IMG/VR virus record: IMGVR_UViG_3300010885_037119 | Coordinates: 1 to 28,224 of that record | Source: a virus | DNA: 28,224 bases | Reading direction: 5' to 3' (one strand) | Part shown: positions 5,498 to 27,311 of the stretch, in pieces | Numbering within the stretch: position 1 is the first letter of the stretch | Layout of the letters: each line of letters opens with the position of its first letter | Program-made: the position numbers and the translations under genes | Notes under the pieces: generated by a model | The model's database searches: none | The model's input: the letters and a program-made list of their open reading frames with translations, nothing else | What the model was told of the DNA's origin: nothing

Positions 5498-6097
5498 TTA
5501 AAGGTGTAATCCTGTTAATTCCTGATCATCCCCAATATCACCTTTTAACCAAGTGTTAAAAGAAATGCTTATCCTTGTTTCTGCTGCTTCCACCGGTTGT
5601 ACCATATGGGTCAATGACGATGGAAACAGGATTAATTGCCCTGTTGTTGCTGGTAACCACCAAGACTCTGAATTATACAAATTCCATTCCTTGGGTGGTA
5701 ACTTAATTTGTCTGTAATTATCCTGATAAAAATATATTCTATCTAGATCCGGGGTAGTTTTTACATAAAATACACCCGAAATAAAACTGTTGGGATGTGC
5801 ATGTTTATGATGATACTGCCCCTGCTCTGTATAGTTGGCCCAAGATTGTGTAATATACGGCGTTACTTGATTCTTTGGATTGTATATTTCATGGAAATAT
5901 TCCAACACAGATTGATTACAGAATTCGGCAATTCTGGCTAACTCTAGATGATCAAATAAATTATGATCAGTGCTAGTGGCATTGCCATCATTGCCTCTGG
6001 TTGGTTGACTTGTTATAAAATCTAACTCATCCTGTGTTAAATCTGAACCAAACTCAAAAAAACTCACTGCTGTGGGGAAAAGATTATGTGTGATCAT
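5498..6097 (-). CDS. 2OG-Fe(II) oxygenase (2OG-FeII_Oxy_5 type)
   Basis: 199 aa. The double-stranded beta-helix signature is visible: H99-x-H101 followed by PNSFISGVFYV supplies the proximal metal ligands in the style of the TIGR02466/2OG-FeII_Oxy_5 family. GQLILFPSSLTHMV supplies distal ligand H164, and R175 in TRISISFN is the likely 2-oxoglutarate-binding residue. These enzymes use Fe(II), O2 and 2-oxoglutarate, usually to hydroxylate; the substrate here is unknown. The start overlaps the stop of the 86-aa gene upstream (ATGA at 6094-6097), implying translational coupling. It is one of three such oxygenases in the window, all in the tail-fibre region. Family assignment is confident; a role in modifying fibre protein or host surface is inference. 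Confidence 0.88.
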   Translation of the reverse strand: MITHNLFPTAVSFFEFGSDLTQDELDFITSQPTRGNDGNATSTDHNLFDHLELARIAEFCNQSVLEYFHEIYNPKNQVTPYITQSWANYTEQGQYHHKHAHPNSFISGVFYVKTTPDLDRIYFYQDNYRQIKLPPKEWNLYNSESWWLPATTGQLILFPSSLTHMVQPVEAAETRISISFNTWLKGDIGDDQELTGLHL

Positions 6098-6354
6098 GCC
6101 GTAGCACTCTCAAAATCCTGTTCCCCCGTTTTCATGCTGGCCAGTTGCTCAGGTGTCCACATGGTGGGAATACTATCTTCAAAATCTTTGAGTTTTTTCA
6201 TAACATCATAGACTTCTTCCACACTGGGCACTGGCCTTGGATCATCCCATTTTGTAAATGCTGTGCCATTAAATTCCCACTTGGCACCCGGACGCAATAA
6301 TTCAATTGCTACATTAACACCTACTAATTTGTAAATTTTCCGATCATCTACCAC
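6094..6354 (-). CDS. Small phage protein, unknown function
   Basis: 86 aa from a GTG start at 6354. The start is supported by AGGTGA five bases upstream and by the absence of a better ATG. The protein has an ELLRPGAKWEF segment, a WDDPRP turn, a predicted helical middle (EEVYDVMKKLKDFED) and IPTMWTPEQLASM near the C-terminus. I recall this pattern from small genes next to collagen-like fibres in aquatic T4-like phages, where they are annotated hypothetical. It follows the glycine-rich adhesin by 21 nt and overlaps the 2OG oxygenase start by 4 nt, so the three are probably co-transcribed. A structural or fibre-chaperone role would fit the position but nothing in the sequence proves it. Confidence 0.75.
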   Translation of the reverse strand: MVDDRKIYKLVGVNVAIELLRPGAKWEFNGTAFTKWDDPRPVPSVEEVYDVMKKLKDFEDSIPTMWTPEQLASMKTGEQDFESATA

Positions 6355-6375
6355 TATATCACCTATATATCTATG

Positions 6376-7932
6376 TTACTGGTTAAATTTAATGATTACA
6401 ATACCTGAACCACCTGAACTGCCGGAAGCAGAACTACCTCCTCCTCCTCCGCCACCGGTATTAGCGATTCCGGAAGCACCACTCGCAGAGGTACCTCCCT
6501 GTCCACCACCACCTGAACCACCGCTTCCTCCACCAGTTGAAACTGAACCACCACCGCCACCAGCATAGGTAACTGAAGAACCAGTAATGCTAGTAGTCAA
6601 TCCATTACCACCATTTTGTGCAGAAGCCGCGGCACCACCGCCTCCTCCACCGCCATTATAACTTGACTGAACACCAGCAGCACCGTTATTACCCTGTGGT
6701 GGATAAACCGAAGGAGTATTACCTGTTCCGCCTGCATAGGCTGCACTTCCTGTTCCAGCACCGCCACCACCGGAACCTCCATTTCCACCTACTGCAATCG
6801 AACCACCGTAACCACCACCCGTTGCGGTTATAGTAGAAAAAACAGAACTAGATCCCTGTGAGCCACTAGTTGCGGGTGTTTGTGCTCCCCCAGATCCACC
6901 GGCTCCAACAGTAACAGTGTAAGTAGCGCCCGGTGTTAATGGTAGACTATTTCCAAATATTACGCCACCGGCTCCGGCACCTCCACCTCCACCTCCACCT
7001 CCGCCACCACCACCACCTACTACCAAGTATTGACATGAAGTCACGCCGGTGGGCACAGTGAAAGAATTTGAAGATGTGAAAACTAATAAGCTTTGGTTGC
7101 CAGCATTTAGAGTGTAAGACAAGATGACTATACCGGAGCCGCCTGTACCGCCTGTTCCACCGTTGACCGTACCACCTCCACCTCCACCAGTGTTTGTGGT
7201 TCCTGCCGTTCCCGAAGTACTTCCGGAACCAGCTCCTCCACCACCTGATCCACCTGATCCAGCAGTTCCACCACCATAAATACCGCCACCGCCGCCGCCT
7301 GCATAGGTCACACTAGCGCCAGATATGCTAGATGCTAATCCTGGTCCACCGGCGCCACTAACTGATGCGCCCGATGCGTTTAATCCCACTCCACCCGCAC
7401 CTCCTCCACCGCCTGATGGGTAAGGACTTGCAACAAATCCACCTTGTGTTCCGCCGTTATTTCCTTGTGAGGGAACAGTTGCTGGAACGTTTCCAAATCC
7501 ATTCGTAACAGTGCCGTTAGCTGAACCAGCACCACCGCCACTTCCGCCAGATCCTGCATTTGATGTAGTATCGTTACCACCATTACCGCCGCCCGCTGCA
7601 ACAATGGTACTAAATGAAGAACTACCACCTACTTTTGCTGGCGTAGCCACATTACTTGTACCCGCAGTACCTCCTGCGCCAACAATGATGGTATAGGTTT
7701 GTCCTGCAGTAACGGGAAAACTAGATCCTGTTAAAAAACCTCCAGCTCCCCCACCTCCTGATGCACCGCCTCCACCACCACCAACTACCAAGTAGTTAAC
7801 TGAAGTTACACCGGCTGGAGCAGTCCAATATACGCTAGAAGTAAATGTTTGAATAACTGTACCACCAGTGCTACCAGTGCTACCAGTTCCACTAGAAAAT
7901 GCTGACAACAGAATTTGAGAAATTCCACTCAT
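6376..7932 (-). CDS. Two-domain glycine-rich (polyglycine) tail adhesin
   Basis: 518 aa. An upstream in-frame start at 7959 is possible, but ATG at 7932 makes an ATGA overlap with the previous gene's stop, so it is preferred. Two homologous ~250-residue domains begin near residues 27 and 282. Each opens with a beta-rich segment of the form VFTSS-x-x-(W/F)T-(A/V)P-x-GVTS-x-x-YLVVGGGGGG, passes through P-x-TAGQTYT-type strands and Gly/Ser loops, and ends in S(V)TYAGGGGG and GGSGIVI. This is the glycine-rich domain found in phage tail proteins. In Salmonella phage S16 gp38, comparable runs form a polyglycine-II sandwich that presents receptor-binding loops. A receptor-binding role is inferred. 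The opposite strand reads proline-rich only because Gly codons mirror Pro codons. Confidence 0.85.
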   Translation of the reverse strand: MSGISQILLSAFSSGTGSTGSTGGTVIQTFTSSVYWTAPAGVTSVNYLVVGGGGGGASGGGGAGGFLTGSSFPVTAGQTYTIIVGAGGTAGTSNVATPAKVGGSSSFSTIVAAGGGNGGNDTTSNAGSGGSGGGAGSANGTVTNGFGNVPATVPSQGNNGGTQGGFVASPYPSGGGGGAGGVGLNASGASVSGAGGPGLASSISGASVTYAGGGGGGIYGGGTAGSGGSGGGGAGSGSTSGTAGTTNTGGGGGGTVNGGTGGTGGSGIVILSYTLNAGNQSLLVFTSSNSFTVPTGVTSCQYLVVGGGGGGGGGGGGGAGAGGVIFGNSLPLTPGATYTVTVGAGGSGGAQTPATSGSQGSSSVFSTITATGGGYGGSIAVGGNGGSGGGGAGTGSAAYAGGTGNTPSVYPPQGNNGAAGVQSSYNGGGGGGGAAASAQNGGNGLTTSITGSSVTYAGGGGGSVSTGGGSGGSGGGGQGGTSASGASGIANTGGGGGGGSSASGSSGGSGIVIIKFNQ

Positions 7933-8525
7933 GACAATCCCGTCCCTGTAATCATCCAAGTAGTAGTGCCTGTCTTGATAGCTGTGGCAATACCATTTTG
8001 AGCCAATGTTCTAGATCCAGCTGAACCGCCGGGTGCCCATGTCAATGTATCTGATGAAATTGCAATGGTCACTGCAGCAGAGGCCATGTTGACAAATGCC
8101 ACAACCGTGCCCACTGCAAAAGCCACACTGGCGTTGGCAGGAATGGTGTATGTGGCTGCGGATGATCCACTGGCGTGGAAAATATGTTTGCCAGCATCAC
8201 TGAGCACCAATGTATAACTACTTGGCTGTGCGTTTTGTGGTGTGTTTAAGAAACCAACACTGTTGGTCCCGTCAACTGTGGAACCTGACAAGTTACCACT
8301 GACCTGACCACCCACATATAGATTTCCACCTATTCCAACACCACCAGCAACAATCAATGCGCCAGTAAGAGTTGAGTTAGATACTGCGGTGCCAGAAATC
8401 GTAAGTGTTGTGGCAGTCAATGCACCCTGAACACGAGTCCAAGCATTGGTACTGGTGCTGTATGAATAAATCGTATTATTGACAATTGCTGTCTGATTGT
8501 TTGTTGGTGAGCTAGGAAATGACAT
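7929..8525 (-). CDS. Stand-alone fibre N-terminal module protein
   Basis: 198 aa with the same N-terminal architecture as the LamG fibre: MSFPSSP, an NT-x-YSYSTSTNAWTRVQ segment, a TGALIVAGGVGIGGNLYVGG motif near residues 55-75, then DGTNSVGFLN and a YTIPANASVAFAVGT jellyroll-like part. In the LamG protein this module continues into the repeats. Here it stops and a separate glycine-rich adhesin gene follows with a 4-nt ATGA overlap. It is probably a virion-anchoring or trimerising module partnering with that adhesin. An AAGGACC ribosome site and an AATAAATA late-promoter-like octamer lie upstream. The role is inferred from module sharing and operon position. Confidence 0.8.
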   Translation of the reverse strand: MSFPSSPTNNQTAIVNNTIYSYSTSTNAWTRVQGALTATTLTISGTAVSNSTLTGALIVAGGVGIGGNLYVGGQVSGNLSGSTVDGTNSVGFLNTPQNAQPSSYTLVLSDAGKHIFHASGSSAATYTIPANASVAFAVGTVVAFVNMASAAVTIAISSDTLTWAPGGSAGSRTLAQNGIATAIKTGTTTWMITGTGLS

Positions 8526-8579: not shown

Positions 8580-8604
8580 TTTTCTTATCCCGTTTTTTTG
8601 CTAT

Positions 8605-8650
8605 TTCCCAATCACACAATTATTATAACATTTTTATGTGTGATTGGGAA
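8605..8650. terminator. Perfect 14-bp stem-loop between fibre genes
   Basis: TTCCCAATCACACA (8605-8618) and its exact reverse complement (8637-8650) enclose an 18-nt AT-rich loop. In the plus direction GTTTTTT follows directly. In the minus direction, the direction of the flanking genes, the hairpin is followed by an A-rich stretch, not a U-tract. It separates the collagen-like fibre from the next transcript and may stop or protect transcripts, but it is not a textbook terminator for the minus strand. Confidence 0.6.
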
Positions 8651-8666
8651 GTTTTTTACATCATAA

Positions 8667-16325: not shown

Positions 16326-16958
16326 TTATTTATTTCCGACCAGTGTCAAATTGATATTGAATGGTATACTATATCTTAATATTTCAGATTTGCATTCCGT
16401 AACACAGTGATCCATCCATCCGGGAAACATAATTATCCTGCCAATCTTGGGGGTATAGTGCACTGATGGTGCATAAAATGGAGATTCTGAAAACATGCTG
16501 GGAAAAGGATGAACCGTCTGGGCACCCTGAGGAAATACGATAAAATCACCAGAGTCTTGATCTATTGTATGGTAGTACACCCCAGAAATATGAGACATGC
16601 CATGATTATGCTTGCCCATATAGTCCCCTTGTGTCATTTCAACTAACCAAGAGTCTACAACATGGAAACTACAAGGCTTGGCACCAATTTTTTCAAGATA
16701 ATTAACAAGACATTTGAAAATATAAGATTTTAAATTGATTAAATTATGTTCTTCAATGATGTTGATAGGCAAATTCAAATTTAATTTGTTGCCATTCTTG
16801 CCTTTGTCCCATGGATAATTAGAAGAATCGGTCAAGTTTGGCGCTATTAATGGAATAATCTGTTGAAGTTCTGAGGTTATTTCCAGCAATTCCTCATCAG
16901 TCGCGTCATTTACAAAGATAGGACAACCAAATATAGCATCTACAGAATTTTCAATCAA
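16326..16958 (-). CDS. 2OG-Fe(II) oxygenase (2OG-FeII_Oxy_5 type)
   Basis: 210 aa starting at TTG (16958). TATAGG lies 8 nt upstream, a TAG in frame closes the frame just above, and no ATG is available. The fold signature is GKHNHGMSHISGVYY, with H117 and H119 as proximal metal ligands. GRIIMFPGWMDHCV then supplies distal H184, and R195 in LRYSIPFNIN is the predicted 2-oxoglutarate contact. It is homologous in layout to the enzyme at 5498-6097 but clearly diverged, so the pair is old or separately acquired. It follows the 174-aa unknown gene by 14 nt and precedes adhesin copy B. Enzyme class is confident; substrate unknown. Confidence 0.87.
   Translation of the reverse strand: MIENSVDAIFGCPIFVNDATDEELLEITSELQQIIPLIAPNLTDSSNYPWDKGKNGNKLNLNLPINIIEEHNLINLKSYIFKCLVNYLEKIGAKPCSFHVVDSWLVEMTQGDYMGKHNHGMSHISGVYYHTIDQDSGDFIVFPQGAQTVHPFPSMFSESPFYAPSVHYTPKIGRIIMFPGWMDHCVTECKSEILRYSIPFNINLTLVGNK
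16327..16334 (-). promoter_or_regulatory. Late-promoter-like octamer AATAAATA
   Basis: Overlaps the stop codon of the upstream 2OG oxygenase gene (16326-16328) and lies 53 nt before adhesin copy B. Confidence 0.45.
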
Positions 16959-18616: not shown

Positions 18617-19246
18617 TCAATTGAAAAAAACGGCCAAATTCATCCTTTCTTCATGGAAAAACGTATCATCATTAATAGCCATATTATGCAAGAACTTTTT
18701 ACCATCAAACATCACCAGTCTATTATATTTTGATTGTAAGGTTTTAATAACTCGATACTTGTCTCTACTTCTCCAAGGCTGGTGATGCTCTTTTATTTGA
18801 TTTGTAATAATCATTTCTTGGTCATCTGCGGTTTCTTCATATAGATTCGTGCCGTCGATGTCCATTTTTGTCAAATAAATCAAGCAATTCCACCCATCAT
18901 CCCTGTGTGGCCACCAATAATTATTCTTATAATCATTAAATTCTTTATCAATAAATCTGGCAATATTGCTATAGATCATATTTGAGCAAACATTGTTACT
19001 ACCACAGATATTAATCAATGTCTGCTGTAGGTCAAATATGCTATCATGCTGAATGTAGTGACGGCCTTCAAAAAACTCAACCGTATTATGTGACGGAAAT
19101 TCCCATTCTTTGTGTAGTCCGGGCTTATTGGTTTTTAAATATTCCACAATATCATCTGGATTCTTGAAAAAATCATCAATGATGTATATTTTACTATCTC
19201 GAAAGTCTTCAACAATTATATTTGTTATTTTATTAATTTCAAACAT
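18617..19246 (-). CDS. 2OG-Fe(II) oxygenase-like protein (DUF6445-like)
   Basis: 209 aa. IYIIDDFFKNPDDIVEYL near the N-terminus is typical of prolyl-hydroxylase-like phage and bacterial proteins. The iron site reads WWPHRDDGWNCLIYL (H114-x-D116), GTNLYEE follows, then LVMFDGKKFLHNMAI (H187) and R201 in EERMNLAVFFN. This is an H-x-D...H...R set as in 2OG dioxygenases, closer to DUF6445 than to the other two oxygenases of the window. It starts 3 nt after the preceding gene. Class confident; substrate unknown. Confidence 0.83.
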   Translation of the reverse strand: MFEINKITNIIVEDFRDSKIYIIDDFFKNPDDIVEYLKTNKPGLHKEWEFPSHNTVEFFEGRHYIQHDSIFDLQQTLINICGSNNVCSNMIYSNIARFIDKEFNDYKNNYWWPHRDDGWNCLIYLTKMDIDGTNLYEETADDQEMIITNQIKEHHQPWRSRDKYRVIKTLQSKYNRLVMFDGKKFLHNMAINDDTFFHEERMNLAVFFN

Positions 19247-20024: not shown

Positions 20025-21281
20025 CTATCCATGCTTTAATAACAGTGTACTCAATACATCAGCACGTTTGGCCGAAATATCACCCTCTCCCGGAGCAATA
20101 ATAACATTCCACTTTTGAATATTACTCTTTTGTGGGATTGCCATCATTTCATCATAAGTCAATATAGACTGTGGCTTTAGATTATATTCTTTGGCCAATC
20201 GATCTTTTAGTGTATGTAGTGCTGCTGGACTATCTGGCTGCCATGCACCGCCCGCTGTCTTGACTAAGTTACCCTTGGCATCTCTTTTCAATAGATCTTG
20301 GAATAATTCATCTGGCACAATTCTAGAATTCTTGGTGCGCTCTAGTCCGGGATCTTGTGCTTTTACTTGTCTTTCTTGCTCAGGGCTAGCACCTTCAGAC
20401 CAATTGATCATAAAGTTATCTGGCTTTTTGGACATAACAGCACTGGCAATCTTGGTATAGGCATAGAAATCAACATCTGGGAATTTTTTAGCAAAATCAA
20501 AAGCCAATTGCATATATTCTGGACTAAAGAAATCACCAGCATCATGCCAGCGAATACTTACTTTGTAATTGCCTTTTTTTCCTGCTGCTTCTTCTTTGGT
20601 AATTTCCTCTGACAATTTGGCAAAGAATCCATCTGGATCATTTAATAAAAATGTCAACAATCTGGCTCTGCTTAACCAACCCGCCTCGTACTGAATATAT
20701 CCACCACCCATGGCATAACAGTCTACCTTACAACTACCAGCACCCGGACAGGTATTGACTATAATTAATTGATTGGTACTTTCATCAACTGCAACTCCCA
20801 CCAATGCTGCAAATCCAACATTAAAGAATTGTTCTAACTCACCATTGGAATGCGCCATCTTTTCATTTTGCTTTAAAATACTGGCAGGTCTCTGTGAAAC
20901 AGCACGCTTGATTGCATCTTCATCGTAGGTTTTGCCATCAGGTAGCAAATACTTGATTGCGCTTGATCGATGAATATAAGGCATTTTATACTTGTCAGAT
21001 GCTGTTTTGTCAGATTTAAACTTTTGTTTTCCAGTTTTCTTGTCAAACTGTCCGGGAAGATCAGTGCCTTTGGTTCTGGTCATGTAATCTTGAAATTCTT
21101 TCCCACCAAGTTCACGACTTGGCGCAGACAATTTGGTAGCCTCATCCACTTCAGCATCATCTTTTGGTTGACTCTGCTGAACAAATTGATCCACTGACAT
21201 GATCTTAATGCCACGAACTGCTCCGGGCAAATCATGACGTGCTTGTTTTTCAATGTTTTCTATTAATTCTCTGATTTTCAT
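20025..21281 (-). CDS. GP88-family cysteine-motif protein
   Basis: 418 aa. Residues ~150-280 carry the landmarks of the phage 'gene product 88' family: NTCPGAGSCKVDCYA (C178, C184, C188-Y189), the nearby GGGY, VSIRWHDAGDFFSPEY (residues 241-256) and DFYAYTK (271-277). The C-x5-C-x3-C-Y pattern suggests a metal or Fe-S site, and the HDAGDFFS block looks catalytic; the chemistry of the family is not known to me. The N-terminus MKIRELIENIEKQ resembles the capsid-targeting sequences of T4 internal proteins, and residues ~30-100 are polar and probably disordered. Other proteins nearby start the same way. Start ATG 21281 follows GAGAA weakly. A role as a packaged or injected enzyme is speculation. 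Confidence 0.75.
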   Translation of the reverse strand: MKIRELIENIEKQARHDLPGAVRGIKIMSVDQFVQQSQPKDDAEVDEATKLSAPSRELGGKEFQDYMTRTKGTDLPGQFDKKTGKQKFKSDKTASDKYKMPYIHRSSAIKYLLPDGKTYDEDAIKRAVSQRPASILKQNEKMAHSNGELEQFFNVGFAALVGVAVDESTNQLIIVNTCPGAGSCKVDCYAMGGGYIQYEAGWLSRARLLTFLLNDPDGFFAKLSEEITKEEAAGKKGNYKVSIRWHDAGDFFSPEYMQLAFDFAKKFPDVDFYAYTKIASAVMSKKPDNFMINWSEGASPEQERQVKAQDPGLERTKNSRIVPDELFQDLLKRDAKGNLVKTAGGAWQPDSPAALHTLKDRLAKEYNLKPQSILTYDEMMAIPQKSNIQKWNVIIAPGEGDISAKRADVLSTLLLKHG

Positions 21282-22675: not shown

Positions 22676-22888
22676 TTAATATCGGTTGTTGCCCACGATA
22701 ATGGGTTTGCTGGCATAGCCTAGATCAAATAATTTGGTAATGGGGTGATCACCCAAATGATCAGATACGGTGCGCATGGCATCTTCTCTGTCAAATGCCT
22801 GTACTTCTATGACATAATTTACCAATTGACCGGTTTCGTCTGGTTTTGAAAAAGTGGCCACATAGACACGTTGCATGGCTATGCCCAT
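22676..22888 (-). CDS. Small beta-rich protein, unknown
   Basis: 70 aa from ATG 22888, which overlaps the previous gene by 10 nt. ATG 22876 (66 aa, MQRVYVATFSKPDETG), 2 nt after that gene's stop, is an equally good start. The sequence alternates a strand (VYVATF), a second strand (VNYVIEVQAF), a helix (DREDAMRTVSDHLG) and a further strand (SKPIIVGNN), resembling a small ferredoxin-like fold. Not recognised. It is the last gene of the operon containing rfbC and one LRW-tail protein. Confidence 0.7.
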   Translation of the reverse strand: MGIAMQRVYVATFSKPDETGQLVNYVIEVQAFDREDAMRTVSDHLGDHPITKLFDLGYASKPIIVGNNRY

Positions 22889-23106
22889 CTTAGCACAAAC
22901 AATGTGCGATCTTGTGGATTGTCAAATTCTAGGGAAATATTGAGATTGCGGATTTTTACCCGTGCGCCATGTGTTTCTAATAACCACTTGGCAAATGGTT
23001 TATGGTCATTCCATAATGGATCTGATAGGAATACCAATGACTTATTGCATTGAACGTTGTTGGCCCAATATATAAATGAGTTAGTGTAAAGTTCTTGGTC
23101 ATTCAT
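22879..23106 (-). CDS. LRW-tail small protein 1
   Basis: 75 aa from ATG 23106 (a TTG four codons upstream is possible). It has an aromatic N-terminal half (YTNSFIYWANN, FLSDPLWNDHKPFAKWL) and ends ISLEFDNPQDRTLFVLRWA-stop. The end motif F-x4-(D/E/Q)-x2-L-(F/W)-x-(L/M)-R-W-x-stop is shared with five other small proteins between 25.3 and 27.3 kb. I do not recognise the family. It lies between the 90-aa gene and the 70-aa gene in the rfbC operon, apart from the other members. Confidence 0.72.
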   Translation of the reverse strand: MNDQELYTNSFIYWANNVQCNKSLVFLSDPLWNDHKPFAKWLLETHGARVKIRNLNISLEFDNPQDRTLFVLRWA

Positions 23107-23125
23107 ACGCCATACCAATCAATCT

Positions 23126-23398
23126 TTAATCGAACCAGCGATGTTCCAAGTGATCCCAATGTCGTACATCGTAGATTTTGTAATGTATATTATATCCCAA
23201 CAATCCAATCTCAAAGTTAAAACCTGCATGGTTTTCTCCGACACTAAATGATAGGTCGAAATTAAACAATGTGGCGCATTGAATATAATGTTCTAATTCC
23301 CAAAATTTGTTCTTGGTCAGTTTACCAGTGACCCATCCCAAATTCTTGAAATAATTGCCCGGTCCGTTGATGCTAGTGTGTAATGATATAATGTTCAT
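23126..23398 (-). CDS. Unknown protein coupled to rfbC
   Basis: 90 aa whose start overlaps the rfbC stop (ATGA, 23395-23398), so it is translationally coupled to it. It is rich in aromatic residues and His: NYFKNLGWVTGKLTKNKFWELEHYIQ, FNFDLSFSVGENHAGFNFEIGLLGYNIHYKIYD split by a short turn, ending HWDHLEHRWFD. It appears beta-rich in the C-terminal half, possibly a small sandwich. No family recognised. The RW near its end is not the LRW motif of the neighbouring family. Confidence 0.68.
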   Translation of the reverse strand: MNIISLHTSINGPGNYFKNLGWVTGKLTKNKFWELEHYIQCATLFNFDLSFSVGENHAGFNFEIGLLGYNIHYKIYDVRHWDHLEHRWFD

Positions 23399-23937
23399 AG
23401 TTCGATGTTGGCAAAAAATTTCCCATTCTTGTCTTTGTCAGAAACAATGGGAGTGATAGTAAAATCCCAAGAAATATTCAAATCTGGGTCGTCATACCTG
23501 ATACAATGTTCACTTTTAGGATACCAATAATCGGTGGTTTTGTAGAGAAAGTTGGCACCTTGTTCTGACAACACTTGGAAACCATGTGCCAATCCTGGCG
23601 GAACCCATAATTGTCGATGATTTTCAGCAGAAAGTTCAACACACACCGACTTTCCAAAAGTAGGAGAATCTTTGCGAATATCAACAGCCACATCCAATAC
23701 CTTACCAGTGACAACACGTACCAGTTTACCTTGAGGATTGGGTGATTGGTAGTGCAAACCACGGATTACACCATACTGTGAGTATGAATGATTATCTTGT
23801 ACAAAATTGGTTTCAACTCCGGTTAAATCTTGAAAATTTTGTTGATTAAAACTTTCAAGAAAGTAACCACGGTGATCACCGAATGTTTTTGGTTCAAGAA
23901 TTAATACGCCTTGAATTTCAGTGTTGTGAACTATCAT
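23395..23937 (-). CDS. rfbC: dTDP-4-dehydrorhamnose 3,5-epimerase
   Basis: 180 aa, the usual length for RmlC/RfbC. The cupin carries the family landmarks: FGDHRGYFLE (R23), VQDNHSYSQYGVIRGLHYQ with catalytic H62, KLVRV, DVAVDIRKDSPTFG, an FVPPG-like WVPPGLAHGF segment with H118, and Y132 in FLYKTTDYW, the second catalytic residue. It converts dTDP-4-dehydro-6-deoxyglucose toward dTDP-4-dehydrorhamnose. No rfbA, rfbB or rfbD is in this window, so it would use host intermediates unless those genes lie elsewhere. It overlaps the 90-aa gene by ATGA. Together with the glycosyltransferase-like gene it hints at sugar modification of host envelope or virion. Function confident; role inferred. Confidence 0.92.
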   Translation of the reverse strand: MIVHNTEIQGVLILEPKTFGDHRGYFLESFNQQNFQDLTGVETNFVQDNHSYSQYGVIRGLHYQSPNPQGKLVRVVTGKVLDVAVDIRKDSPTFGKSVCVELSAENHRQLWVPPGLAHGFQVLSEQGANFLYKTTDYWYPKSEHCIRYDDPDLNISWDFTITPIVSDKDKNGKFFANIEL

Positions 23938-23950
23938 TTTATGTTATCCA

Positions 23951-24058
23951 CTATATAATTATCAGTGACAGTACACCACCATAGGAAGTCATCTTACTTC
24001 TACCGGTGTTATTTGCAAGTTCTTGAAAACGAATAATTTGATCGTATAATTCTTTCAT
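23951..24058 (-). CDS. Tiny protein coupled to the HD hydrolase
   Basis: 35 aa from ATG 24058 to TAG 23951. The start overlaps the hydrolase stop as ATGA, the same coupling used by confirmed genes here. It fills an otherwise empty 117-nt gap. The sequence begins MKELYDQIIRFQELANN (helical), has a short SKMTSYGG loop and ends in LSLIII. It has no recognised relatives and may be a chance ORF, but the coupling favours a gene. Confidence 0.5.
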   Translation of the reverse strand: MKELYDQIIRFQELANNTGRSKMTSYGGVLSLIII

Positions 24059-24555
24059 AATAATTTTCTAGCTTCTGCCATCAACCTAGCATCACCTTTA
24101 TCCAATACTTCCAACAATAATCTCTTTTCTTCCAAGTAGATCCTAGCAAAATTCTTATCATGTTTCAATATACTACGTGTATTTGAAATAAGATCGGCAA
24201 TTTTGATCGTCATAGCTTCTGCTGGTGATTGGGCAAGATGAGCACGATCAATCGCCTTGCGCACGGCTCTATTGCCGTCTTCAGGCTTGCTGACATCTGT
24301 CAACCATGCTACTAAATCTGCAACATCTGAACCAAATTCAGCCAAGATGGTTTCTATTGTAATACCAGTATCTTCAACTACGTCATGTAGGAAAGCTGCC
24401 GCAATCATTTCAGGAGTGCCACCCACTTCTTCCACCATCTTGGCAACCTCTATGGGATGGACGATATAAGGCTCATCAGTATATTTGCGGCGTTGACCCA
24501 CCGCAGCATGTGCCGCCGTGGCAAATATCCTGGCTTTTTCTACAAGTGGTAACAT
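24055..24555 (-). CDS. HD-domain (p)ppGpp/nucleotide hydrolase, SpoT/MESH1-like
   Basis: 166 aa, the size of a stand-alone small alarmone hydrolase. The HD site is complete: H33 (YIVHPIEVA), H57-D58 and E61-D62 (AFLHDVVEDT), and D121 with N125 (KIADLISNT). R23-K24 (QRRKYTDEPY) match the substrate-binding Arg-Lys of MESH1 and SpoT hydrolases. FG-x-x-VA-x-LV-x-x-LTDVSK is the usual family middle. These enzymes remove the 3'-diphosphate from (p)ppGpp; human MESH1 also acts on NADPH. No synthetase or TGS domain is present. It starts 3 nt after the zinc-ribbon gene and couples to a 35-aa ORF. Blunting the host stringent response is the natural inference; activity on another nucleotide is possible. 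Confidence 0.88.
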   Translation of the reverse strand: MLPLVEKARIFATAAHAAVGQRRKYTDEPYIVHPIEVAKMVEEVGGTPEMIAAAFLHDVVEDTGITIETILAEFGSDVADLVAWLTDVSKPEDGNRAVRKAIDRAHLAQSPAEAMTIKIADLISNTRSILKHDKNFARIYLEEKRLLLEVLDKGDARLMAEARKLL

Positions 24556-24558
24556 GAT

Positions 24559-24855
24559 TTAAGTCATTAATTCTGAAATAATTTTTCGGTAAGCTTCAAT
24601 ATTACCTTCAATAAAACGATAAGGCAAGGGATTTAAGTCAGAATTAAGTTGTTTTTGAGATGATTTTTCAAGATCACAAGCAAATGCCAGTAACGAGTCA
24701 CGTTCTGATTTGACAGTATTCCGCCAAACTTGGGAATGTTTTCCAGTGCCTTTGGTAACAAACTCCCAGCATGGACTACACAGTTCTCCCACGAATGATC
24801 CTTGATCCTGATGATTCAGACAATCCTTGACGATACATTTGATATGTTGTTTCAT
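24559..24855 (-). CDS. Small zinc-ribbon-like protein
   Basis: 98 aa. C7-x4-C12 and C26-x2-C29 (IKCIVKDCLNH, GELCSPCWEF), with H15 nearby, form a probable zinc-binding knuckle. They are followed by TKGTGKHSQVWRNT and a helical C-terminal half (ERDSLLAFACDLEKSS, IEAYRKIISEL). Similar CxxC small proteins are common hypotheticals in aquatic phages. A regulatory or nucleic-acid-binding role is possible but unproven. The start overlaps the upstream stop (ATGA, 24852-24855), and the HD hydrolase follows after 3 nt. Confidence 0.75.
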   Translation of the reverse strand: MKQHIKCIVKDCLNHQDQGSFVGELCSPCWEFVTKGTGKHSQVWRNTVKSERDSLLAFACDLEKSSQKQLNSDLNPLPYRFIEGNIEAYRKIISELMT

Positions 24856-25064
24856 TTTGATAATATCTCGATTAATTCCAAAAATAGTTTGTCTTTGATA
24901 ATTTTCGATTCTCTAATTAGAATTGGATCATTTGAATTTTCAAATTCTCGAATTGTAGTAATCAACTCGTTAAACAATGATGTGTTTACCAAATAACTGA
25001 TATATAAATTATGTAATTTTTTCACAGAATTTCTAATCTGATTGTCTATTTCAGCAATCTTCAT
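24852..25064 (-). CDS. Small helical protein, unknown
   Basis: 70 aa, almost entirely predicted alpha-helical (IDNQIRNSVKKLHNLYISYL, FNELITTIREFEN, KIIKDKLFLELIEILSK), highly charged and without cysteine. ATGA overlaps at both ends (24852-24855 and 25061-25064) place it firmly in the operon. Low-GC codon use (AAA, ATT, TTA) is stronger than in the fibre genes. Function unknown. Confidence 0.7.
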   Translation of the reverse strand: MKIAEIDNQIRNSVKKLHNLYISYLVNTSLFNELITTIREFENSNDPILIRESKIIKDKLFLELIEILSK

Positions 25065-25255
25065 ACAATACCATTATTTTGTTCGTATGTTTTTATCGCC
25101 TGCTGCAATTCTTCGGGAATTCCTATTTCCGTTAACTCAGAAAAAGATTCTTTAATACGAAGATACCATTCTCGTTGCTGTTCTTTATTCATAGTATCTA
25201 TAAAGTTTTTGTGATTTTTTAATTCATTCAGTTGTTGGTTCATTCTTCGACCCAT
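25061..25255 (-). CDS. Small helical protein, first gene of the hydrolase operon
   Basis: 64 aa from ATG 25255. ATG 25243 (MNQQLNELKNHKNF, 60 aa) is an alternative with GGTCGAAGA just upstream, whereas 25255 has no SD. The protein is helical and polar (NKEQQREWYLRIKESFSEL, PEELQQAIKTYEQNN). An extended -10 promoter lies directly upstream, so it heads the unit running through the zinc-ribbon and HD hydrolase genes. Function unknown. Confidence 0.68.
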   Translation of the reverse strand: MGRRMNQQLNELKNHKNFIDTMNKEQQREWYLRIKESFSELTEIGIPEELQQAIKTYEQNNGIV

Positions 25256-25271
25256 TAATATTATTGACTTT

Positions 25272-25302
25272 ATTATAACAGTAGTTCACATCGAGCTCAC
25301 AA
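25272..25302 (-). promoter_or_regulatory. Candidate extended -10 promoter
   Basis: TGTTATAAT (25272-25280) is a perfect extended -10 on the minus strand. The best -35-like match is TTGTGA (25297-25302) at a long 19-bp spacing, which an extended -10 can tolerate. It would drive the 64-aa, 70-aa, zinc-ribbon and HD hydrolase genes. Confidence 0.55.
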
Positions 25303-25306
25303 GTTA

Positions 25307-25546
25307 TTAACCCCATCTTAGCAAAAACAAGGTACGGTCTTGATCCCGTTCAAACTCAAATACGCCTTCACCCACATAACGCCATCCGGGCCCCCGTGCA
25401 GTGGCTCCTATGCCGCCACCAAATGTTGCCACACACCATTCCATGCAAGGTTTCCACCCTTGATAATAAACCTTCCATGTTGAATAATCTGGTCCACGTT
25501 GAGCTGCTGGTGCCATGATACTGGCCACAAACCAATTTTCTGTCAT
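25307..25546 (-). CDS. LRW-tail small protein 2
   Basis: 79 aa. It has an aromatic N-terminus (NWFVASIM, STWKVYYQGWKPCMEWCVATF), a Gly-rich middle (GGGIGATARGPGWRY) and the family ending EFERDQDRTLFLLRWG-stop. It starts 3 nt after the stop of LRW-tail protein 3, so the two are co-translated neighbours. Two cysteines lie in the WKPCMEWC segment. Not recognised outside this set. Confidence 0.75.
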   Translation of the reverse strand: MTENWFVASIMAPAAQRGPDYSTWKVYYQGWKPCMEWCVATFGGGIGATARGPGWRYVGEGVFEFERDQDRTLFLLRWG

Positions 25547-25549
25547 AGG

Positions 25550-25771
25550 TTATGACCACCGCATTGTCCATAATAGTAATTCACGTTGGTCAGCAAATTT
25601 GATGACCATGCCATTCATACTATCACAGCCTTTTGACAGATTCAATATCATCCACGATTCTATATCATATTGATTGGCCAAATACCATTCATAGTCACGA
25701 ACAAGCACCATATGCCTATCAAAGTATTCGTCGTGATAATATATCCAAGGTTGATCTAAATTGAGTGTCAT
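25550..25771 (-). CDS. LRW-tail small protein 3
   Basis: 73 aa. The N-terminal half is rich in aromatic and acidic residues (WIYYHDEYFDRHM, YEWYLANQYDIESWMIL). The C-terminus VIKFADQRELLLWTMRWS-stop is a variant of the family motif, with E for D, W for F and M for L. AGAAG lies about 9 nt before the ATG. It precedes LRW-tail protein 2 by 3 nt and lies 70 nt downstream of the endolysin gene. Confidence 0.75.
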   Translation of the reverse strand: MTLNLDQPWIYYHDEYFDRHMVLVRDYEWYLANQYDIESWMILNLSKGCDSMNGMVIKFADQRELLLWTMRWS

Positions 25772-25841: not shown

Positions 25842-26678
25842 TTATGCCAACCAAGTCTCGTTGATGCCCAGAGCTTGTCTGAATTGTCTATATTTTATAG
25901 CACGATCATCCAATCCATGTAGGTTGGGGTTGATTTTATGGGTGACTTGTTCAATATCTCCATAGTCACTGACATTGGGCTGCACTCTGGTTTTCCAGAA
26001 CCATACTGCGATACGTGCAGCAATGTTGGGATCAGCAGCCAGATCTGGTTCTTTTTCTAGTGGGATTCCCAATGCTTGACCTGCAGCTTTATAATTATAT
26101 CGTCCAGTCAATTGAACAAAACCACGTCCACGATATTGATAACCATCACCAACATGGATATTGCCCAATTTTTTGGCCACTTTTGGATTATGTTTGATAT
26201 CGTATTTTAAAAACTTGGGATCTCCCACTGATTTTTCAATCATTCGGGTAAAGTTCCAAGTTTCATGCGCACTTTGTGCAAGAAATGCAGCCAATTCTTG
26301 TCCCGCAATACCAGCACCCTGAGCAGTTTTAATCAATTTTTGTGTATAAGGATTATTGAGTAAGGTTGGTGGAGGTGGTGGTGGAGGCGATGCTGTTGGT
26401 TGTTGCACTTGACTGTCTTTTTCCGGTGCAGCTTGTTTAGGTGCCTGTGGTGCCTGTTTTTTACCTGACGATGATGGAGTTTGATACTGGATCATGCTGC
26501 TAAATGGATCTTGAGATCGTGCACCAGTATTGGTATCAGCTGGGGGATCGGTTGCAATTAGGCCATAACCCAATGCACCCGCGGCCAAAGCACCGGCTGC
26601 ATATTTTCCCAGCCCTTCTTCAAGGTCATCGATTTCAATATCTGGTTGGTGGGGAGTAATAAATTCTCTGGCTCTCAT
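25842..26678 (-). CDS. GH19-type endolysin/chitinase-like muramidase with N-terminal anchor
   Basis: 278 aa from ATG 26678. A GTG at 26699 would overlap the upstream gene, and the ATG gives the MRAREFI start that resembles its neighbours. Residues 25-43 are a hydrophobic Ala/Gly segment (KYAAGALAAGALGYGLIA). Residues ~66-104 are a Gln/Pro-rich linker ending in seven prolines. The catalytic domain (110-278) has FLAQSAHETWNFTRMIE, with H138 and E139 as the GH19 HET motif (E139 the likely acid) and E148 nearby, then GDGYQYRGRGFVQLTGRYNY (G184-R-G). This lysozyme-like fold cleaves peptidoglycan. The N-terminal segment could be a membrane anchor, or, with L19-E-E21 before G22, part of a packaged-protein leader. 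Domain call confident; location uncertain. Confidence 0.87.
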   Translation of the reverse strand: MRAREFITPHQPDIEIDDLEEGLGKYAAGALAAGALGYGLIATDPPADTNTGARSQDPFSSMIQYQTPSSSGKKQAPQAPKQAAPEKDSQVQQPTASPPPPPPPTLLNNPYTQKLIKTAQGAGIAGQELAAFLAQSAHETWNFTRMIEKSVGDPKFLKYDIKHNPKVAKKLGNIHVGDGYQYRGRGFVQLTGRYNYKAAGQALGIPLEKEPDLAADPNIAARIAVWFWKTRVQPNVSDYGDIEQVTHKINPNLHGLDDRAIKYRQFRQALGINETWLA

Positions 26679-26686
26679 GATAGGAG

Positions 26687-26694
26687 TATTTATG
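26687..26694 (-). promoter_or_regulatory. Late-promoter-like octamer CATAAATA overlapping a stop
   Basis: The TAA stop of LRW-tail protein 4 is the first three bases of TAAATA. The motif is only 9 nt before the endolysin ATG, very short for a T4 late leader, so this one is doubtful. Confidence 0.3.
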
Positions 26695-26902
26695 TCCACC
26701 GCAACGTGAACAACAGGGCATCCCGTTCAGATTCAAACATAATGACATTGTTGGATTCTCTGCTAAGATCTAGTACGGCGCCATATTCTTGGTGTAACCA
26801 GTCCCGCATACCAGCATAGGTGTGATGTGATCCACTTTGAACTATGGTCTTGTAATGAGTAAACACAGTGAGAAAGTATGGCTGCAGTGGTAGTTCTGTC
26901 AT
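26690..26902 (-). CDS. LRW-tail small protein 4
   Basis: 70 aa from ATG 26902, which shares one base with the upstream stop (TAATG). A GTG at 26911 is less likely. It starts MTELPLQPYFLTVFTHY, clearly homologous to MITLPLQPYLPNIMEHY of the adjacent protein 5, and ends VIMFESERDALLFTLRWT-stop. It is the closest pair within the family, showing tandem duplication. The middle (TYAGMRDWLHQEYGAVLDL) suggests a helix followed by a strand. Confidence 0.78.
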   Translation of the reverse strand: MTELPLQPYFLTVFTHYKTIVQSGSHHTYAGMRDWLHQEYGAVLDLSRESNNVIMFESERDALLFTLRWT

Positions 26903-27108
26903 TATGCCCACCTTAACGCAAATAACAAGGCATCTTGTTGATTTTCAAATATGAAAAATTGACTATGATTGTCATTATCACACTCTGCACGCCAATTAAG
27001 TTTTAGCCAATACTTAAAATCAGGAAAAGTATAGGCCCAACTATCTGGGCACTGATCATAGTGTTCCATTATGTTGGGCAAGTATGGCTGTAGTGGTAGT
27101 GTGATCAT
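26902..27108 (-). CDS. LRW-tail small protein 5
   Basis: 68 aa from ATG 27108, chosen because it makes an ATGA overlap with the upstream stop; ATG 27114 and a longer frame exist. N-terminus MITLPLQPYLPNIMEHYDQ, middle FPDFKYWLKLNWRAECDND, end FFIFENQQDALLFALRWA-stop. Paralogous to protein 4 along its full length. Confidence 0.78.
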   Translation of the reverse strand: MITLPLQPYLPNIMEHYDQCPDSWAYTFPDFKYWLKLNWRAECDNDNHSQFFIFENQQDALLFALRWA

Positions 27109-27311
27109 GGCCATCTCAGGGCAAATAACAGTGCTTGTTGATCTGTGGGAAATGTCACACATGGTTGCCCAGTTTCAAGATAACGTATATTGGAAAATCC
27201 ATAATACTGTTTGACACTTAATAGTGGAGTATCAGGTTTGGCTGTCTCATCAAGATACTGAGATAGCAAGTTTTCCCAGATGGGCAGGGGAACCAAGATT
27301 TCGGTGGTCAC
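27105..27311 (-). CDS. LRW-tail small protein 6
   Basis: 68 aa from a GTG start at 27311, supported by GGGGGTGA a few bases upstream; the preceding stop is 3 nt away. The N-terminus MTTEILVPLPIWENLLSQYLDE shows the same (L)-PLP-x pattern as proteins 4 and 5. It ends CVTFPTDQQALLFALRWP-stop, with Q replacing D. The middle (LLSVKQYYGFSNIRYLETG) is beta-like. Confidence 0.76.
   Translation of the reverse strand: MTTEILVPLPIWENLLSQYLDETAKPDTPLLSVKQYYGFSNIRYLETGQPCVTFPTDQQALLFALRWP

What the first reader, a model, noticed from the sequence alone, without database searches (positions are those of the whole stretch)
24055..24555. Phage-encoded alarmone hydrolase with an intact SpoT/MESH1 active site
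All expected residues are visible (R23-K24, H33, H57-D58, E61-D62, D121, N125) in a 166-aa stand-alone enzyme with no synthetase domain. It lies in an operon headed by an extended -10 promoter, consistent with early expression. Removing (p)ppGpp would keep ribosome and nucleotide synthesis running in a starved aquatic host, or counter alarmone-based defence.
Basis: partly seen in the sequence, partly recalled or inferred. Interest (0 to 1): 0.6.

Follow-up and report, generated by a model that had tools for sequence, protein, structure and literature searches.

The report
Phage small alarmone hydrolase, PaSpo-like
This environmental phage carries an intact small enzyme that strips pyrophosphate from bacterial alarm nucleotides, and probably from toxin-blocked tRNAs, a phage gene type that is already known and widespread, so it is real but mostly ordinary.

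Summary
Window 24055-24555 (-) encodes a 166-aa stand-alone HD hydrolase in which all six alarmone-hydrolase motifs are present. Pfam HD_4 E is 6.6e-18. The predicted structure (pLDDT 97.3) superposes on human MESH1 at Z 24.2 over 161 of 166 residues. There is no synthetase domain.

It is not rare or new in kind. Relatives occur in 326 phage and 363 plasmid records. In the tree it falls, with 99/95 support, in a phage/plasmid small-alarmone-hydrolase (SAH) clade that excludes metazoan MESH1 and the long Rel/SpoT enzymes. That clade holds PaSpo of Salmonella phage SSU5 (about 51% identical). PaSpo is reported to neutralise toxSAS toxins by removing the pyrophosphate they put on tRNA 3'-CCA ends. 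The early-expression argument is weak: the same -10 motif also precedes a tail gene.

One lead is of wider interest. In a clade of related environmental phages the SAH recurrently sits beside an RNA ligase, a polynucleotide-kinase-like kinase and a metallophosphoesterase. This suggests that some phage SAHs belong to RNA-repair islands. The window itself shows no such genes.

The parts
24055..24555 (-). Small alarmone hydrolase (SAH), 166 aa, PaSpo-like phage clade
24487..24489 (-). HD1 motif residue R23 (with K24 at 24484-24486); first of the HD1-HD6 catalytic motifs (H33; H57-D58; E61-D62; D121; N125 follow)
   Evidence: positions computed from the ORF frame
24559..24855 (-). 98-aa ORF directly upstream of the SAH (3 nt between its stop and the SAH ATG); Cys/His-rich N-terminus, no family match, no relative found in viral contigs
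24852..25064 (-). 70-aa ORF of the same operon (ATGA overlaps on both sides), no family match
25061..25255 (-). 64-aa first ORF of the operon, no family match
25272..25280 (-). Extended -10 promoter-like element TGTTATAAT upstream of the operon
   Evidence: 7 TGNTATAAT in the window, 2.4 expected by chance
23951..24058 (-). 35-aa ORF overlapping the SAH stop codon (ATGA)
   Evidence: read from the sequence
23395..23937 (-). rmlC, dTDP-4-dehydrorhamnose 3,5-epimerase, next gene downstream on the same strand
   Evidence: PF00908 9e-72; TIGR01221 6.3e-75 over cut-off
25842..26699 (-). Endolysin (Glyco_hydro_19), upstream of the SAH operon on the same strand

Best explanation
The gene encodes a catalytically intact, Mn2+-dependent small alarmone hydrolase of the phage PaSpo type. 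It removes the 3'-pyrophosphate from purine alarmones ((p)ppGpp, (p)ppApp) and most likely also from tRNA 3'-CCA ends that toxSAS defence toxins have pyrophosphorylated. During infection it would keep translation and nucleotide pools working by undoing host toxSAS/alarmone defences (counter-defence), with relief of the ordinary stringent response as a side effect. Shown here: the gene, its predicted fold, its complete active site, its phage-SAH clade membership, purifying selection in the family, and the absence of a synthetase partner on this contig. Inferred: the catalytic activity, its metal and substrates, its time of expression and the biological purpose.
For: All HD1-HD6 residues are present, and all but K24 are invariant across 41 aligned sequences. 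Pfam, PHROG and TIGR families match. AlphaFold model pLDDT 97.3, pTM 0.92; it superposes on human MESH1 at Z 24.2, rmsd 1.6 A, 161 aa, and Foldseek's top PDB hits are all alarmone hydrolases. About 51% identity over residues 5-154 to PaSpo of phage SSU5. One clade with PaSpo, split from MESH1 and the long RSHs at 99/95. [quoted passage not shown] The SSU5 and PVP-SE1 phage SAHs relieved FaRel lethality (reported in PMC7644958). dN/dS is about 0.05-0.2 in close family pairs. There is no PF04607 synthetase in the contig, so it is not seen as one half of a toxSAS-antitoxin pair here.
Against: No biochemical data exist for this protein. Substrate choice (G versus A versus tRNA versus NADPH) cannot be read from sequence (PMC7644958). 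The 28-kb contig holds no other recognised counter-defence or RNA-repair gene (PADLOC was run only on the SAH operon ORFs). The neighbouring genes (epimerase, endolysin, tail) say nothing about function. The host is unknown, so the presence of toxSAS in it is unknown.
Confidence: 0.6

Rival explanations
1. Stringent-response override: the enzyme chiefly hydrolyses host (p)ppGpp made by RelA/SpoT, keeping rRNA synthesis and GTP pools high in slow-growing hosts. No defence system is involved.
For: MESH1/SpoT-like active site and fold. SAHs such as XccSAH lower (pp)pGpp in starved cells (PMC9765508). Lytic environmental phages often infect slow-growing hosts (general knowledge).
Against: The phage SAHs with tests on record (PaSpo, in this clade; PVP-SE1 SAH, not placed in the tree) are known for neutralising toxSAS. 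In one clade the SAH is linked to RNA-repair genes rather than to nucleotide-synthesis genes. Early expression is not shown.
Confidence: 0.22
2. (p)ppApp or NADPH hydrolase: like Methylobacterium SAH or the Bacteroides enzyme it acts mainly on (p)ppApp, or like MESH1 it dephosphorylates NADPH to NADH.
For: SAH specificities vary: the M. [quoted passage not shown] 7smg, a (p)ppApp hydrolase, is among the structural matches.
Against: The closest solved fold is MESH1, which acts on both G and A alarmones (PMC7644958); 7smg scores lower (Z 18.0, 137 aa). NADPH turnover is about 1000-fold less efficient than alarmone turnover in XccSAH (PMC9765508).
Confidence: 0.1
3. Inactive or regulatory HD protein: it binds an alarmone or a toxin without catalysis.
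For: Nothing positive. Some RSH HD domains are dead (for example E. coli RelA; general knowledge).
Against: Every catalytic residue is conserved. Family dN/dS is low.
Confidence: 0.04

Closest known systems
PaSpo, SAH of Salmonella phage SSU5 (phage SAH)
   Same: Stand-alone HD alarmone hydrolase, about 51% identity over residues 5-154, same supported clade, all catalytic motifs, PEDGNR loop shared
   Different: PaSpo is 213 aa with a C-terminal extension and a TNIARPEDGNR loop; the window protein is 166 aa with TDVSKPEDGNR. Activity has been tested only for PaSpo.
Human/fly MESH1 (HDDC3)
   Same: Fold (Z 24.2, 161/166 aa) and active site
   Different: About 29% identity and outside the MESH1 branch of the tree. 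The loop after motif HD4 differs (TDVSKPEDGNR versus VTDDKTLPKLER).
Long RSH enzymes Rel/SpoT (RelSeq, B. subtilis Rel)
   Same: HD hydrolase domain motifs aligned residue by residue
   Different: No synthetase, TGS or ACT domains; separate branch
HD-alarmone PDEase of jumbo phages (Iyer et al. 2021, PMC7824862)
   Same: Same enzyme class in phages, already proposed as a counter to alarmone-based host immunity
   Different: Described in jumbo-phage groups 2 and 3; the window is a 28-kb fragment of a phage of unknown size.
SAH of Komagataeibacter phage phiKM1 (BCZ76000.1)
   Same: Closest annotated phage relative, 61% identity
   Different: The phage carries an integrase; there the SAH follows a HicA-HicB pair in one operon

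Membership tests
Small alarmone hydrolase (SAH) of the RSH superfamily | HD1-HD6 motifs complete (R/K, H, HD, ED, D, N) | tested here: met
Small alarmone hydrolase (SAH) of the RSH superfamily | Stand-alone hydrolase domain without a synthetase domain | tested here: met
   166 aa; the HD fold fills the protein; PF04607 absent from the contig
Small alarmone hydrolase (SAH) of the RSH superfamily | All-helical alarmone-hydrolase fold | tested here: met
   (predicted model)
Small alarmone hydrolase (SAH) of the RSH superfamily | Mn2+-dependent removal of 3'-pyrophosphate from (p)ppGpp or (p)ppApp | not testable with these tools
   needs an enzyme assay
Phage PaSpo-type SAH | Falls in one clade with SSU5 PaSpo, apart from MESH1 and the long RSHs | tested here: met
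   99/95 for the 48-row group; placement inside the group unresolved
Phage PaSpo-type SAH | Neutralises toxSAS by removing pyrophosphate from tRNA-CCA | not testable with these tools
   shown for PaSpo only (PMC11559606)
MESH1 | Groups with metazoan MESH1 in a phylogeny | tested here: not met
   MESH1 pair 100/96, on the other side of the 99/95 split
MESH1 | NADPH phosphatase activity with a nicotinamide-riboside motif | not tested
   motif residues not available in the text read; activity needs an assay
toxSAS-antitoxin module | SAH encoded beside a toxic small alarmone synthetase | tested here: not met
   no PF04607 match in the 28-kb contig

The most novel reading that the evidence does not exclude
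Phage SAHs of this clade, this one included, act chiefly as tRNA 3'-end healing enzymes. They would remove the pyrophosphate that toxSAS defence toxins put on CCA ends, working alongside the RNA ligase, polynucleotide kinase and phosphoesterase that mend cleaved tRNAs. Phage RNA-repair islands would then mend the acceptor end as well as the anticodon loop. The support is guilt by association in relatives plus PaSpo biochemistry. The window itself carries no such island.
Probability: 0.3. Interest if true: 0.55.

Novelty: new member of a known kind. Interest (0 to 1): 0.3.

Why it matters
For this gene alone the value is modest: one more intact phage SAH, in a clade with a tested member. More generally, the recurrent linkage of phage SAHs to an RNA ligase, kinase and metallophosphoesterase in related environmental phages suggests a testable reason why phages carry alarmone hydrolases. 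They may repair tRNA ends modified by toxSAS defences rather than only switch off the stringent response.

Tried and rejected
Shared gene neighbourhood with relatives: tblastn of 32 window proteins against the viral SAH loci found no shared adjacent gene. A profile search later showed that a small window protein family with a C-terminal LFxLRW motif also occurs directly downstream of the SAH in 15 related loci. Relatives of the window's 418-aa protein (80 loci) do not carry the SAH nearby. The neighbours orf98 and the endolysin gave no viral relatives with single-sequence patterns. A PADLOC search of the operon found nothing. RNA-repair genes in the window: none found with profiles built from the relatives. 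PF09511 over whole relatives' contigs was uninformative, since it missed ligases that Pfam does recognise. RNA-repair linkage as a general rule of phage SAHs: no such gene was seen near the SAH in Psa21, PDP46, pVa-21, JA33, SSU5 or phiKM1, and RHph_X66 has RtcB only 13 kb away. tRNA proximity: mixed, no statistical test made. T4-type late promoter TATAAATA: one hit, 2 expected. The three primary papers on SAH antitoxins and (p)ppApp hydrolases (PNAS 2020, Mol Cell 2021, PNAS 2023) were not held, so their content is cited only through other papers.

Full report
WHAT IS THERE. ORF 24055-24555 on the minus strand encodes 166 aa with an ATG start. They align with R44, K45, H53, H77, D78, E81, D82, D144 and N148 of RelSeq. 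Pfam HD_4 matches at 6.6e-18, PHROG 990 'metal-dependent phosphohydrolase' at 8.5e-42, and the hydrolase part of TIGR00691 at 2.3e-27. In an alignment of the window protein with 40 relatives, eight of the nine residues are invariant and K24 is nearly so. A synthetase domain was not found anywhere in the 28,224-base contig, which is a virus record and probably a fragment.

STRUCTURE. The AlphaFold2 model from that alignment has mean pLDDT 97.3 and pTM 0.92. Foldseek's best PDB matches are all alarmone hydrolases. The best by Z-score is human MESH1: Z 24.2, rmsd 1.6 A, 161 of 166 residues, 29-30% identity. C. glutamicum RelH, P. aeruginosa SAH, Leptospira SAH and the Rel/SpoT domains come next, and the Bacteroides (p)ppApp hydrolase 7smg is lower at Z 18.0 over 137 residues. 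Other HD hydrolases such as YpgQ fall to Z of about 12.

PHYLOGENY. A maximum-likelihood tree of 62 proteins splits into two parts with 99/95 support. One holds human and fly MESH1, Lmo0812, C. glutamicum RelH and the long Rel/SpoT hydrolase domains. The other holds the window protein, all the viral relatives, PaSpo of Salmonella phage SSU5 and two sequences from cellular assemblies, which may be prophages. Placement inside the phage part is poorly resolved, and several named-phage rows are long branches. The protein is therefore MESH1-like in fold and active site but belongs to a phage SAH clade. A loop after the fourth motif (TDVSKPEDGNR) is shared by nearly all the close viral relatives, and in related form by PaSpo (TNIARPEDGNR). 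Close family pairs show dN/dS of about 0.05-0.2, so the family is under purifying selection. Window-to-relative dS is saturated.

HOW COMMON. tblastn finds relatives in 326 of 50,697 phage records and 363 of 72,556 plasmid records, and a pattern scan of IMG/VR finds 214 loci. The closest named phage is Komagataeibacter phage phiKM1 at 61%. There the SAH is the third gene of a HicA-HicB operon.

WHAT IS KNOWN OF THE FUNCTION. PaSpo was co-expressed with CapRel SJ46 as an SAH shown to neutralise toxSAS toxins (PMC9712102). [quoted passage not shown] SSU5 and PVP-SE1 phage SAHs alleviate FaRel toxicity (reported in PMC7644958). Bacterial SAHs can act on (pp)pGpp, pppApp and, weakly, NADPH (PMC9765508). 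Base specificity is not predictable from sequence (PMC7644958). Iyer et al. 2021 already proposed that jumbo-phage HD-alarmone phosphodiesterases counter alarmone-based immunity, and surveyed phage RNA repair separately (PMC7824862). The biochemical reading for this gene is inference from these relatives.

CONTEXT IN THE WINDOW. The SAH is the fourth gene of a tight operon, orf64-orf70-orf98-SAH, followed by a 35-aa ORF and rmlC, with ATGA overlaps or short gaps. An extended -10 (TGTTATAAT) lies 17 nt upstream of orf64. TGNTATAAT occurs 7 times in the window against 2.4 expected, also upstream of the tail-type gene 7929-8525, so it does not mark early genes. The operon lies between an endolysin and rmlC, with tail-type genes beyond, on the same strand. 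Early expression is not established. The three upstream ORFs have no recognised family.

CONTEXT IN RELATIVES, THE MOST INTERESTING LEAD. Within 5 kb of the SAH in 80 viral loci the most recurrent neighbours are a dual-specificity-phosphatase-like protein, a metallophosphoesterase (phrog_547) and a P-loop kinase (AAA_33; weak match to polynucleotide kinase). An RNA ligase (PF09511 2.6e-11) and an RNA-binding DUF2828/DUF7788 protein (phrog_850), labelled TROVE in my tables, also recur. After collapsing SAHs at 95% identity to 48, the counts are metallophosphoesterase 25, phosphatase 24, kinase 22 and ligase 14, against at most 12 for any other family. The genes appear in 20 different orders. 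Most of this is one clade, so the counts are not independent events. Two cultured phages with divergent SAHs add support. Acidovorax phage ACP17 has a homologous ligase 2.7 kb upstream and a homologous metallophosphoesterase directly downstream. Stenotrophomonas phage DLP_6 has the phrog_850-type gene at 3.9 kb and a tRNA-Arg gene nearby. Pseudomonas phage Viktualia has a tRNA-His guanylyltransferase three genes upstream, and XacN1 has tRNA genes just downstream. Many others show no such link (Psa21, PDP46, pVa-21, JA33, SSU5, phiKM1), nor does the window. I treat this as suggestive. It fits PaSpo's action on tRNA ends, but no genome-wide chance test was made, and I chose the tested phages.

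VERDICT. The gene is most likely a functional PaSpo-type small alarmone hydrolase. Counter-defence against toxSAS/alarmone systems is my leading role (0.6 for the whole statement), with stringent-response override as the main rival (0.22). It is a new member of a known kind. The literature search covered only papers held under open licences, and three key papers were not held, so an earlier report of the RNA-repair linkage cannot be excluded.

Noticed in passing
window 22879-23118, 25307-25546, 25550-25771, 26690-26911, 26902-27162, 27105-27311 (all -): Six small ORFs (68-86 aa) on both sides of the SAH share a C-terminal F...LFxLRW-type motif, apparently a paralogous family with no significant PHROG match. 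A profile of them finds 15 loci, all directly downstream of the SAH in related phages, and none in 80 viral loci chosen for another window protein or in the cellular loci.
   Followed up: partly
window 8590-8660 (-): An extended -10 (TGTTATAAT at 8622-8630) sits between the arms of an inverted repeat, CCCAATCACACA...TGTGTGATTGGG, upstream of the tail-type gene 7929-8525; it looks like an operator or hairpin over a promoter.
   Followed up: no
L083 (Pseudomonadaceae MAG), match 6001-6489: An SAH domain at the start of a 438-aa open frame with an uncharacterised C-terminal part of about 260 aa, that is, a fused SAH.
   Followed up: no
L162 3340-4519 (Komagataeibacter phage phiKM1): The closest named-phage SAH overlaps the end of hicB in a hicA-hicB-SAH operon.
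   Followed up: no
window 5498-6097, 16326-16958 and 18617-19246 (-): The first two ORFs match the 2OG-Fe(II) oxygenase family phrog_81; the third matches phrog_1644 'minor coat protein' and weakly phrog_274, which the second also hits.
   Followed up: no
window 20025-21281 (-): A 418-aa protein with 467 relatives in a pattern scan of viral contigs (about 60% identity in the best) but only phrog_1392/phrog_1617 of unknown function as family matches.
   Followed up: no
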